Positions 50,038 through 53,016 of a DNA stretch of 64,000 nt are shown one piece after another. Source of the stretch: Bacillota bacterium (GTDB lineage Bacteria > Bacillota > Clostridia > Caldicoprobacterales > DTU083); assembly GCA_029549985.1 (NCBI GenBank), contig JAKPIB010000031.1, forward strand, positions 1 to 64,000, given 5' to 3'. The notes beneath the pieces are model-generated. The model was given only the letters and a program-made list of their open reading frames with translations, was not told where the DNA came from and ran no database searches. How positions within the stretch are numbered: the first letter of the stretch is position 1; each line of letters opens with the position of its first letter. Both the position numbers and the translations under genes were made by a program.

Positions 50038-50486
50038 TGGAACTGAGGAACGAGATGCGGCTGGAGTTTTTGAGCAAGTCACAGAATGAATCCTTTGCCC
50101 GAGCTGCGGTAGCTGCGTTTGCGGCCCAGCTTGACCCCACCCTGGAAGAAATTGCCGACATCAAGACTGCCGTTTCCGAGGCGGTGACCAACGCTATAAT
50201 ACATGGCTATGAAAGTCCGGACAAATATGTACAGGTCATAACGAAGATATATGATGGCACAGTGGTCATAGAAGTGATCGACCATGGCAAGGGCATAGAA
50301 GACGTAGAGCTGGCGCGACAGCCCCTTTATACGACAAAGCCTGAGCTTGAGCGGTCCGGTATGGGCTTCACGGTCATGGAGACCTTTATGGATGAGGTGG
50401 AGGTGACCTCAGCGCCGGGGCAGGGCACAAGGGTACGGATGGTAAAGCATATCAGAAGTAATTCCGGAGAAACGGGGAATGGCTGA
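50037..50486 (+). CDS. spoIIAB: Anti-sigma F factor / protein kinase SpoIIAB
   Basis: A 149-residue GHKL kinase. '[23 protein letters not shown]' is the N-box, and '[41 protein letters not shown]' holds the G1 and lid regions. It binds and holds sigma-F, and phosphorylates SpoIIAA using ATP. ATG 50037 shares one base with the spoIIAA stop (TGATG), and GGGAGG at 50024-50029 is well spaced. A GTG one codon earlier is less likely. Confidence 0.97.
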
Positions 50487-51244
50487 TGTGTGCAGTTACT
50501 GACTTCGGGGAAGACAGAGAGCTGCTTTCCCATGAAGAGACCCTCAGCCTGATCAGGAAGGCCCAGAACGGAGATGAAGAAGCGAAGGACAGGCTGGTGC
50601 GCAAAAACATCGCCCTGGTCAAGAGTCTGGTAAAGAAGTTTCTGAACCGAGGCTACGAGTATGAGGATCTGTTTCAACTGGGATCAATAGGCCTCATAAA
50701 GGCCATACAGAACTATGAGCCCAAGTACAACGTTCGTTTTTCAACCTATGCTGTTCCATTGATAGTGGGGGAGATAAAGCGTTTCCTGAGGGATGATGGG
50801 ATAATAAAGGTAAGCCGGTCCCTGAAGGAGCTTGTGAACAAGGCTTTGGCAGTCAAGGAGCAGCTCAAGGGGACCCTGGGCAGAGATCCGAGCATTCAGG
50901 AGATCGCAGAAGCAACGGGCAGTACTCCTGAAGACATCATCTATGCCATGGAGGCTGTGCGGACTCCGGCTTCGATATATGATGTGATCTATGAGGATGA
51001 TGACAATCCGATCCTGCTGATCGACAAGATGGCAGAAGACAGCACGCAAATGGAGGAATCCACCAACAGAATGACATTGAAGGATATGCTGTCCAGGCTC
51101 GACAAGAGGGAACGGACAGTCATCATATTGAGATACTTCAAGGACAAGACCCAGAGTGAGATAGCCCAGCTCCTTAACATTTCCCAGGTCCAGGTCTCAC
51201 GGATCGAAAAAAAGGTCCTGCTCAAGATGCGGGAGATGATGTGA
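50486..51244 (+). CDS. sigF: RNA polymerase sigma-F factor
   Basis: A 252-residue forespore-specific sigma factor. Region 2 reads 'NIALVKSLVKKFLNRGYEYEDLFQLGSIGLIKAIQNYEP' with 'RFSTYAVPLIVGEIKRFLRDDG'. Region 3 has 'VSRSLKELVNKALAVKEQL'. Region 4 has 'RLDKRERTVIILRYFKDKTQSEIAQLLNISQVQVSRIEKKVL'. Its ATG overlaps the spoIIAB stop by one base. It directs early forespore genes, including that for sigma-G. A weak hairpin and T-run (about 51253-51288) follow. Confidence 0.97.
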   Translation: MCAVTDFGEDRELLSHEETLSLIRKAQNGDEEAKDRLVRKNIALVKSLVKKFLNRGYEYEDLFQLGSIGLIKAIQNYEPKYNVRFSTYAVPLIVGEIKRFLRDDGIIKVSRSLKELVNKALAVKEQLKGTLGRDPSIQEIAEATGSTPEDIIYAMEAVRTPASIYDVIYEDDDNPILLIDKMAEDSTQMEESTNRMTLKDMLSRLDKRERTVIILRYFKDKTQSEIAQLLNISQVQVSRIEKKVLLKMREMM

Positions 51245-51325: not shown

Positions 51326-51355
51326 GTATAATACACACAAGGGCTGCACATACTA
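51326..51355 (+). promoter_or_regulatory. Sigma-G/F-type promoter upstream of the spoVA genes
   Basis: GTATA at 51326-51330, an 18-base spacer and CATACTA at 51349-51355. The -10 matches the CATnnTA forespore consensus exactly, and the -35 matches the GnATA core. In Bacillus the spoVA operon depends on sigma-G. An overlapping TATAAT at 51327-51332 lacks a partner at the right distance. Confidence 0.7.
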
Positions 51356-51417
51356 GCTATAGCATTTCGGGCTGATTAGGCCACTTTTATCTATCATGCA
51401 TTGAGGGATGATGTACC

Positions 51418-51579
51418 GTGAGATCCGGAAGGATTATTTTAAGGCTTTTTGTCGCGATTTTACTGCTTGCCGCGATCAGCGCCCTGTCAGTTCTGGCCGT
51501 TGTACATTACCAGGCCATCAAGAACAAGACATACTCCGGGGCAATATACATAAATGTCTGCTATACTGACCTGATATGA
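51418..51579 (+). CDS. Unlabelled 53-residue membrane protein coupled to spoVAA
   Basis: An ORF from GTG 51418 to TGA 51579 with GAGGG 10 bases before the start. The product has a basic N-terminus (RSGRIILR), one strong membrane helix ('LFVAILLLAAISALSVLAVVHY', about 10-31) and a short C-terminal tail with one Cys. Its stop overlaps the spoVAA start as ATGA, and spoVAA has no ribosome-binding site of its own, so spoVAA translation likely depends on this ORF. It lies just downstream of a sigma-G-like promoter. I know no family for it. It could be a small accessory subunit of the SpoVA dipicolinate channel or only a translational leader. Confidence 0.6.
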   Translation: MRSGRIILRLFVAILLLAAISALSVLAVVHYQAIKNKTYSGAIYINVCYTDLI

Positions 51580-52199
51580 ACCGGCACGATCAAAATGGCA
51601 GGGTCATATACACCCAGTTCAAAACCGGATTCAGGGCTGAACCTGGCAAGCCGGTACTGATCGGAGATATCCTTGACATATCCTGTCCCCCGGGGCTTAA
51701 AGACAAAGTCGTGAGGATCCGGGTTTTTTCCGAGGGGATTAAAAGGCCTGTAAAGCTTTCAGCAGTACAGATCGTAGACATCATAACCTCAGAAATCGGG
51801 GATGCGGCCATAAACCATATGGGCAATACGAACATCCTGCTGGTACCGTCAAAACAGCAGAAGGAGAACAGGCTGTTTGCATACATAAGACTTATTCTCG
51901 CCATGATCCTCCTGTTTTTGGGGTCTGCCCTGGCTATAATGTACTTCCATGCTGACGTGAACATGAAGGAGGTCCACAGGTTGATCAGCCGCCTGATTAA
52001 CGGGGACCGTGCCGCAAGTCCCTTGCTGTTCAGCATCCCCTATTCCCTGGGTATTGGTATCGGGATCGGGGTATTTTTCAATGTATTTTCGGGCAAGGAC
52101 AAAAAGAGCCGGCCCGGCCCCCTGGAGCTGGAGCTGCATCAGAGCAAGCGGGAGCTTCATGACTATCTGATCGACATGGAGGAGCAAAATAAAAGTTGA
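51576..52199 (+). CDS. spoVAA: Stage V sporulation protein AA
   Basis: A 207-residue protein. The N-terminal beta domain ('GRVIYTQFKTGFRAEPGKPVLIGDILDI', 'LSAVQIVDII') is followed by a two-helix membrane part. 'YIRLILAMILLFLGSALAIMYFHADVNMKEVHRLI' and 'LLFSIPYSLGIGIGIGVFFNVFSGK' match the signature of SpoVAA. SpoVA proteins form the route for dipicolinic acid into the forespore and out at germination. The gene overlaps the small upstream ORF by ATGA and ends in a TTGA overlap with spoVAB. Overall length is normal. Confidence 0.9.
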   Translation: MNRHDQNGRVIYTQFKTGFRAEPGKPVLIGDILDISCPPGLKDKVVRIRVFSEGIKRPVKLSAVQIVDIITSEIGDAAINHMGNTNILLVPSKQQKENRLFAYIRLILAMILLFLGSALAIMYFHADVNMKEVHRLISRLINGDRAASPLLFSIPYSLGIGIGIGVFFNVFSGKDKKSRPGPLELELHQSKRELHDYLIDMEEQNKS

Positions 52200-52600
52200 G
52201 ATACATCATTTCCGTGCTGACTGCACTTGCCGGCGGGCTGGCAGTAGGCGCAGCTGTTGTTGCATTTTTAACTGTACTGGGGGTTATTATAAGGATAGTG
52301 GAGCTGACCGGGGAAAGCTTCAGTATCCGTTGGTATCAGACAAGCATCATACTGGGGAGCTTGTTTTCCTGCGCCGCGTACTTCCTCGACCCGGACCTGT
52401 CAGGCTGCAGGATACTGGCTGTCCCGGCGGGACTTGTCTGTGGCATCTATATTGGCATGATCGCAGCTGCCCTGACAGAAACCTTCGATATATTGACGGT
52501 TGCGGCAGATACCTTCAGTATAGTTAGGTGGATCTACCTGCTGGTATGGACCGTTGTTTTGGGCAAGATCATAGGCTCGGTCATATTCTTTATGTATTAG
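52196..52600 (+). CDS. spoVAB: Stage V sporulation protein AB
   Basis: A 134-residue integral membrane protein with about four helices: 1-30, 48-62, 68-90 and 110-134. 'ALAGGLAVGAAVVAFLTVLGVIIRI' and 'LPDLSGCRILAVPAGLVCGIYIGMIAAALTETFDIL'-like text match SpoVAB. It acts with SpoVAA in the inner forespore membrane. The TTG start overlaps the spoVAA stop (TTGA). spoVAC, spoVAD and spoVAE do not follow here and must be elsewhere if present. Confidence 0.9.
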   Translation: MRYIISVLTALAGGLAVGAAVVAFLTVLGVIIRIVELTGESFSIRWYQTSIILGSLFSCAAYFLDPDLSGCRILAVPAGLVCGIYIGMIAAALTETFDILTVAADTFSIVRWIYLLVWTVVLGKIIGSVIFFMY

Positions 52601-52625
52601 TTCAATAGTTGCTGCATAGGGAGTG

Positions 52626-52781
52626 ATGTTCAGATTGAACAGGGTCAGGCATCAGATCAGACAGCCTGAAACAGAAGGGAGAAACCCTGAGGAGAATGAA
52701 ATACATCACAAGGAGATAAGTGATATCGCAATAAGCAAGGATATCAGAAATACCGCTATAGGAAGGGATACTTCCGAATAG
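52626..52781 (+). CDS. Possible small hydrophilic ORF after spoVAB
   Basis: A 51-residue frame (ATG 52626 to TAG 52781) starting MFRLNRVRHQIRQPETEG and ending in ISKDIRNTAIGRDTSE. AGGGAG lies just before the start, at a short distance. The sequence is charged, with no membrane helix. The 'EISDIAISKDIRNT' stretch faintly recalls the start of GerA/SpoVAF proteins ('I-S-K-x-L-x-x-N'), and spoVAF belongs to this operon in Bacillus, so it could be a decayed remnant. Evidence is weak, and it may not be translated. Confidence 0.3.
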   Translation: MFRLNRVRHQIRQPETEGRNPEENEIHHKEISDIAISKDIRNTAIGRDTSE

Positions 52782-52806: not shown

Positions 52807-53016
52807 GTGTCAGTATACAAGATACTGGACCTTGTAGGGTCATCGACCGTAAGCTGGCAGGATGCGGTGGAAAACTGCGTAGCTACTGCTGCCAGGACCA
52901 TAGATAATATAGTGGGTGTAGAAGTGATCAGCCAGACCGCTAAGGTTGAAAACGGCAAAATAGTGGAATACAGGGCCAATGTACATGTTTCCTTCAGGGT
53001 CGAAAACAGGGACTGA
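52807..53016 (+). CDS. Dodecin-family flavin-binding protein
   Basis: A 69-residue protein of the dodecin fold. 'YKILDLVGSSTVSWQDAVENCVATAARTI' has the conserved Trp-x-D/E-A segment that stacks on flavin. 'GVEVISQTAKVENGKIVEYRANVHVSFRVE' completes the three-strand sheet. Dodecins form hollow 12-mers that store or buffer flavins. GTG start behind AAGGAGGG. It has its own terminator and may be co-transcribed with the spoVA genes, which would link flavin storage to the spore, but this is inference. Confidence 0.9.
   Translation: MSVYKILDLVGSSTVSWQDAVENCVATAARTIDNIVGVEVISQTAKVENGKIVEYRANVHVSFRVENRD

What the first reader, a model, noticed from the sequence alone, without database searches (positions are those of the whole stretch)
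51418..51579. Uncharacterised 53-residue membrane protein between sigF and spoVAA
Seen: GTG-started ORF with one clear membrane helix, a sigma-G-type promoter 60-90 bases upstream, and an ATGA overlap with spoVAA, which has no ribosome-binding site of its own. The coupling suggests the ORF is translated in the forespore at the same time as the SpoVA proteins. It could be a small subunit or regulator of the dipicolinate channel. I know of no named gene at this place in Bacillus.
Basis: partly seen in the sequence, partly recalled or inferred. Interest (0 to 1): 0.7.

Follow-up and report, generated by a model that had tools for sequence, protein, structure and literature searches.

The report
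Unnamed conserved spoVA-operon membrane microprotein
A 53-residue membrane protein that no database names is encoded at the head of the spore dipicolinate-channel (spoVA) operon in many Clostridia-type spore formers, but in none of the Bacillus-type genomes checked, so it is probably an unrecognised part of the machinery that loads or releases the spore's main protective small molecule.

Summary
The finding holds and is broader than claimed. The GTG ORF at 51418-51579 is a real gene. Its sister genome keeps the same frame, a start at the same position (ATG there), the Shine-Dalgarno and the ATGA overlap, with dN/dS 0.21 against 0.19 for spoVAA. All 23 relatives with spoVAA carry it. A profile built outwards from it finds one small ORF in each of about 80 of 391 Clostridia genomes. 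Of 64 hits checkable against listed spoVAC coordinates, 63 lie just 5' of spoVAC on the same strand. It also occurs in Halanaerobiia, Symbiobacterium and Tissierellales, and in none of 21 Bacilli genomes. Architecture is constant: short basic N-tail, one helix, then 6-9 residues later a motif [YFP]-x-[RGK]-[AG]-x-[FLM]-V, probably extracytoplasmic. A sigma-G-type promoter lies before it. It follows spoVAC away from sigF and persists where spoVAA/AB are lost. No Pfam or NCBIfam family and no solved structure matches. Best explanation: an accessory SpoVA subunit docking at the extracytoplasmic mouth of the dipicolinate channel; the mechanism is inferred, not shown. A second unnamed small ORF (52623-52781) lies in the same operon.

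The parts
51326..51355 (+). sigma-G-type forespore promoter: -35 GTATA (51326-51330), 18-nt spacer, -10 CATACTA (51349-51355)
   Evidence: sequence; same exact site in sister L002; enriched over shuffles across 52 loci
51403..51412 (+). Shine-Dalgarno GAGGGATGAT of the small ORF
   Evidence: sequence; conserved in sister genome
51418..51579 (+). 53-aa single-pass membrane protein, first gene of the spoVA transcript (GTG start, stop TGA overlapping spoVAA)
51445..51504 (+). transmembrane segment (residues 10-29)
   Evidence: hydropathy; AF2 helix
51532..51552 (+). conserved post-TM motif YSGAIYI (residues 39-45), family consensus [YFP]-x-[RGK]-[AG]-x-[FLM]-V
   Evidence: alignments A1, A4; constant 6-9 residue distance from TM
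51576..51579 (+). ATGA stop/start overlap with spoVAA
   Evidence: sequence; same overlap in sister L002
51576..52199 (+). spoVAA
   Evidence: Pfam SporV_AA E 1.7e-7
52196..52600 (+). spoVAB
   Evidence: Pfam SpoVAB E 2.2e-22
52623..52781 (+). second conserved, unnamed small hydrophilic ORF of the operon (consensus YHQI...KNxEEKExRHDL)
50486..51244 (+). sigF (upstream neighbour)
   Evidence: TIGR02885 338 bits, above cut-off

Best explanation
It is a conserved forespore inner-membrane microprotein of the spoVA operon (shown: gene, conservation, operon position; promoter by sequence; inferred: function). It inserts N-in/C-out. Its short motif-bearing tail sits just above the membrane and docks onto the extracytoplasmic side of the SpoVA complex (SpoVAC/SpoVAEb channel, with SpoVAA/AB where present), helping to gate or assemble the dipicolinate channel. 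It would work like a minimal tethered counterpart of the extracytoplasmic 'cap' NJ2 of Bacillus anthracis SpoVA2.
For: Purifying selection: dN/dS 0.21 against the sister, Fisher p 6e-5. Unbiased synteny: 63 of 64 checkable profile hits lie directly 5' of spoVAC or its spoVAA/AB neighbours, 52 of them within 700 nt of spoVAC. It follows spoVAC away from sigF (L049, L050, L082-L084, L099, L103). It persists without spoVAA/AB. Forespore-type promoter upstream. Constant TM-to-motif distance and positive-inside bias, net charge +3.4 on the N side against +1.9 on the C side. The tail is unstructured alone in AF2 (pLDDT about 70), as expected of a docking peptide. A channel cap on this face is documented for SpoVA2 (PMC13059800), whose yhcN gene lies directly 5' of spoVAC (PMC10126465).
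Against: No complex prediction was possible and nothing shows physical contact. In the window's own family spoVAC-AD-AEb sits in another operon without this ORF. In G008/G011, which lost spoVAA/AB at this locus and have spoVAC elsewhere, the ORF survives beside sigF but with higher dN/dS (0.44 core, sigF 0.06), so the partner could be SpoVAA/AB. Published work found C. difficile SpoVA works in B. subtilis without any cap (PMC13059800), so a cap-like part is not universal.
Confidence: 0.48

Rival explanations
1. It is a partner of the SpoVAA/SpoVAB module, not of the C/D/Eb channel, and helps restrain premature germination signalling.
For: In the window's family it stays with spoVAA-AB while spoVAC-AD-AEb is elsewhere. 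dN/dS is higher after spoVAA/AB loss in G008/G011. B. subtilis spoVAA or spoVAB mutants germinate prematurely, suppressed by gerA deletion (PMC11841064).
Against: Many families have the ORF next to spoVAC with no spoVAA in the operon. Bacilli have spoVAA/AB but lack the ORF.
Confidence: 0.2
2. It is a forespore membrane protein with an unrelated function that merely shares the forespore promoter.
For: It remains beside sigF without any spoVA gene in G008/G011; no interaction evidence exists.
Against: It moves with spoVAC to several non-sigF neighbourhoods, which chance sharing would not predict repeatedly.
Confidence: 0.2
3. It is a leader ORF that controls translation of the spoVA mRNA (coupling or ribosome arrest); its product has no function in the membrane.
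For: First ORF of the transcript, ATGA overlap with spoVAA lacking its own SD in the window.
Against: Coupling geometry is not conserved (4-nt overlap here, about 25 nt in Caldicoprobacter, up to several hundred nt before spoVAC). The motif is at a fixed distance from the TM but at variable distance from the stop (0 to about 30 residues). With 6-9 residues between TM and motif, the TM would still be in the ribosome tunnel at arrest.
Confidence: 0.07
4. It is a precursor of a secreted peptide cleaved at the motif.
For: Basic N-tail plus hydrophobic segment resembles a signal sequence; SGA could fit a -3/-1 rule in the YSGAKFV branch.
Against: The PSRGVFV, PKRATLV and EPEKADLV branches break the -3/-1 rule; the motif is 6-9 polar residues beyond the hydrophobic segment.
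Confidence: 0.04

Closest known systems
SpoVANJ2 (YhcN/YlaJ-family lipoprotein) of Bacillus anthracis SpoVA2, PMC13059800
   Different: NJ2 is a lipoprotein with a folded domain; this is a 53-aa single-pass protein with a short tail and no matching Pfam/NCBIfam family; function untested
SpoVAA / SpoVAB accessory proteins of the spoVA operon
   Same: Same operon, inner forespore membrane, accessory to the C/D/Eb core
   Different: No sequence relation; found without spoVAA/AB in many Clostridia and absent from Bacilli that have them
Translation-monitoring leader proteins (MifM, SecM type; from general knowledge)
   Same: Short TM-containing ORF upstream of a membrane-protein gene
   Different: Motif placement, variable downstream spacing and genomic mobility do not fit arrest control

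Membership tests
SpoVA operon component | Conserved position in the spoVA operon across lineages | tested here: met
   63 of 64 checkable profile hits 5' of spoVAC within 2.5 kb, same strand; 23/23 directly 5' of spoVAA
SpoVA operon component | Forespore (sigma-G/F type) promoter driving it with spoVA | tested here: met
   Promoter-like sites upstream of the small ORF, enriched over shuffles; sigG present in genome. Transcription itself not measured
SpoVA operon component | Required for DPA transport or release | not testable with these tools
   Needs deletion and DPA assay
YhcN/YlaJ (NJ2) cap lipoproteins | YhcN/YlaJ domain and lipobox cysteine | tested here: not met
   No credible Pfam/NCBIfam hit for the window protein or family members; no conserved Cys in A4
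YhcN/YlaJ (NJ2) cap lipoproteins | Binds extracytoplasmic face of the SpoVAC/AEb channel | not testable with these tools
   No multimer prediction available; topology only inferred from charge bias
Ribosome-arrest leader peptide | Arrest motif at fixed spacing to the regulated gene | tested here: not met
   Spacing to the next gene and to the stop varies widely

The most novel reading that the evidence does not exclude
The ORF founds an ancient protein family, present in Clostridia, Halanaerobiia and Symbiobacteria and lost in Bacilli, that is a tethered extracytoplasmic gate of the dipicolinate channel, so that the Bacillus SpoVA complex on which current models rest is a reduced version.
Probability: 0.25. 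Interest if true: 0.82.

Novelty: new variant of a known kind. Interest (0 to 1): 0.62.

Why it matters
How dipicolinate is pumped into and released from spores is an open question. Current models rest on Bacillus SpoVAC/D/Eb plus, in one operon, an extracytoplasmic cap. A small gene under purifying selection at the head of the spoVA operon across Clostridia-type spore formers gives a concrete extra component to test, and its absence from Bacilli explains why model-organism genetics would not have found it. Its motif is short and variable, and no curated family covers it.

Tried and rejected
A direct genome-contig scan with the small-ORF alignment was not possible (too few conserved columns), so SpoVAA was used instead. 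Weak Pfam/NCBIfam/PDB hits (flagellin, FliL, cytochrome oxidase, MacA) are generic TM matches and were rejected. The overlapping +1-frame ORF 51408-51569 was rejected: it is hydrophilic, and its frame was not among those found in relatives. The absence of spoVAC/AD in the window's genome was considered as real loss and rejected as probably an assembly gap: the S1-protein gene that flanks them in relatives is also missing. The signal-peptidase cleavage idea was rejected because other branches break the rule. Literature searches found no mention of this gene, but subscription papers are not covered.

Full report
What is there. The ORF at 51418-51579 encodes VRSGRIILRLFVAILLLAAISALSVLAVVHYQAIKNKTYSGAIYINVCYTDLI. 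It lies between sigF (TIGR02885) and spoVAA/spoVAB (Pfam SporV_AA and SpoVAB). Its stop overlaps the spoVAA ATG. The only genome of the same genus searched (G001) has the same ORF at 72-74% identity, with ATG in place of GTG, the same Shine-Dalgarno and the same overlap.

Is it a gene. In all 23 genomes in which SpoVAA was found in the first search (the window's own included), a 52-78 residue ORF (first-start call) with one TM helix and a shared motif sits immediately before spoVAA. dN/dS for 13 pairs is 0.07-0.47. For the window against its sister it is 0.21, beside 0.19 for spoVAA of the same pair, with nonsynonymous sites changing far less than synonymous ones (Fisher p 6e-5). Substitutions summed over pairs fall 126/49/203 on codon positions 1/2/3.

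How wide. An A1 profile search of 391 Clostridia genomes showed the ORF also in order members without spoVAA, where it precedes spoVAC, and in a lineage (f40) where spoVAC is not near sigF. Reading 1.3-3.5 kb ending in spoVAC in 60 loci, mostly one to three per family, revealed the same architecture in many more families, with motif variants PSRGVFV, PNRAKLV, PKRAVLV and EPEKADLV. A scan of named genomes for SpoVAA showed it in Caldicoprobacter (the window's order), Alkaliphilus, Anaerosolibacter, Geosporobacter, Tissierella, Natronincola, Thermohalobacter, Natroniella, Halonatronum, Symbiobacterium and others. It was not found in Bacilli, where the sigF-spoVAA gap is usually about 80-230 nt when sigF was recognised. 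The broad profile A4 was then run over the 391 genomes at E<=1e-5: 82 genomes matched, nearly always once. Of the 64 hits in genomes whose spoVAC position had been listed, 63 lie 5' of spoVAC on the same strand, 52 of them within 700 nt and the other 11 at about 1.1-1.4 kb, the distance spoVAA and spoVAB occupy. Some of these genomes contributed seeds; many did not. In 36 named genomes all 15 non-Bacilli hit at 1e-16 to 6e-8 (most of these were seeds or close relatives of seeds), while 21 Bacilli gave nothing better than 9.5e-5, and those hits were partial TM matches in larger frames. At E<=1e-5 about four fifths of the sampled Clostridia give no hit. Some of that is limited sensitivity (several families found by eye were missed), some is true absence (family f43, where sigF and spoVAC nearly abut).

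Anatomy. N-tail about 7.6 residues, TM about 20, motif 6-9 residues after the TM in most of 48 sequences, then a variable tail that in some members ends at the motif. Charge bias favours N-in/C-out (+3.4 against +1.9), a modest difference. AF2 gives a confident helix 3-35 and a disordered tail. No fold search was made because a single helix is uninformative.

Expression. A sigma-G-like promoter (GTATA-18-CATACTA in the window) lies upstream of the small ORF. Such sites are enriched about 13-fold (exact) or 3.4-fold (one mismatch) over dinucleotide shuffles. sigG is present. The ORF is therefore probably the first gene of the forespore transcript; this is a sequence inference, not a measurement.

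What it tracks. It goes with spoVAC when the operon is away from sigF (f9, f40, f62, f66). It exists without spoVAA/AB. In the window's family spoVAC-AD-AEb is a separate operon with no small ORF, and the ORF stays with spoVAA/AB. In G008/G011 it stands alone beside sigF with dN/dS 0.44 in its core against 0.06 for sigF, from few substitutions. So SpoVA as a whole is the best-supported partner; which subunit is unresolved.

Mechanism. SpoVAC and SpoVAEb form the channel and SpoVAD the cytoplasmic plug. In B. anthracis SpoVA2 a lipoprotein (NJ2) co-purifies with the complex and is predicted to cap its extracytoplasmic face (PMC13059800); its gene lies directly 5' of spoVAC (PMC10126465). A motif held 6-9 residues above the membrane on the same face, from a gene in the same position, suggests an analogous docking role. 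This is analogy. It is not membership: there is no YhcN/YlaJ domain.

Second small ORF. Between spoVAB and spoVAC in this order there is another unnamed hydrophilic ORF, window 52623-52781, with consensus YHQI-x-KNxEEKExRHDL. In L055 it is fused to the TM protein, and in L056/L057 it follows it directly, which suggests that the two act together.

Limits. Start codons of several relatives are uncertain. Seeds and hits partly overlap. The literature library lacks most subscription papers. No interaction, expression or phenotype was tested.

Noticed in passing
window 52623-52781 (+); also L109, L112, L043, L036, L041, L042, L012-L015, L018-L022, L003, L005, L006: Second conserved, unnamed small hydrophilic ORF between spoVAB (or the small TM ORF) and spoVAC; consensus YHQI...KNxEEKExRHDL...RDIRN; fused to the small TM protein in L055.
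   Followed up: partly
window 52807-53016 (+); L111 (G047): A dodecin gene (Pfam PF07311) follows spoVAB in the window, and a dodecin-like ORF also lies between spoVAB and spoVAC in G047, suggesting dodecin can be a spoVA-operon member.
   Followed up: no
L114-L121 (family of the window): In this family spoVAC-AD-AEb forms a separate operon behind an S1-like ribosomal-protein gene, with more divergent SpoVAC, away from sigF-spoVAA-AB; possibly a replaced operon.
   Followed up: partly
G000 (window genome): No spoVAC/spoVAD in the assembly, but the flanking S1-protein gene is missing too, so a missing contig is likelier than loss.
   Followed up: yes
L082-L084, L228, L224 (family f9): Small TM ORF and spoVAC-AD directly follow a gene for a large (about 750 aa) ClpC/ClpB-like ATPase (by eye, not profile-tested) instead of sigF.
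   Followed up: no
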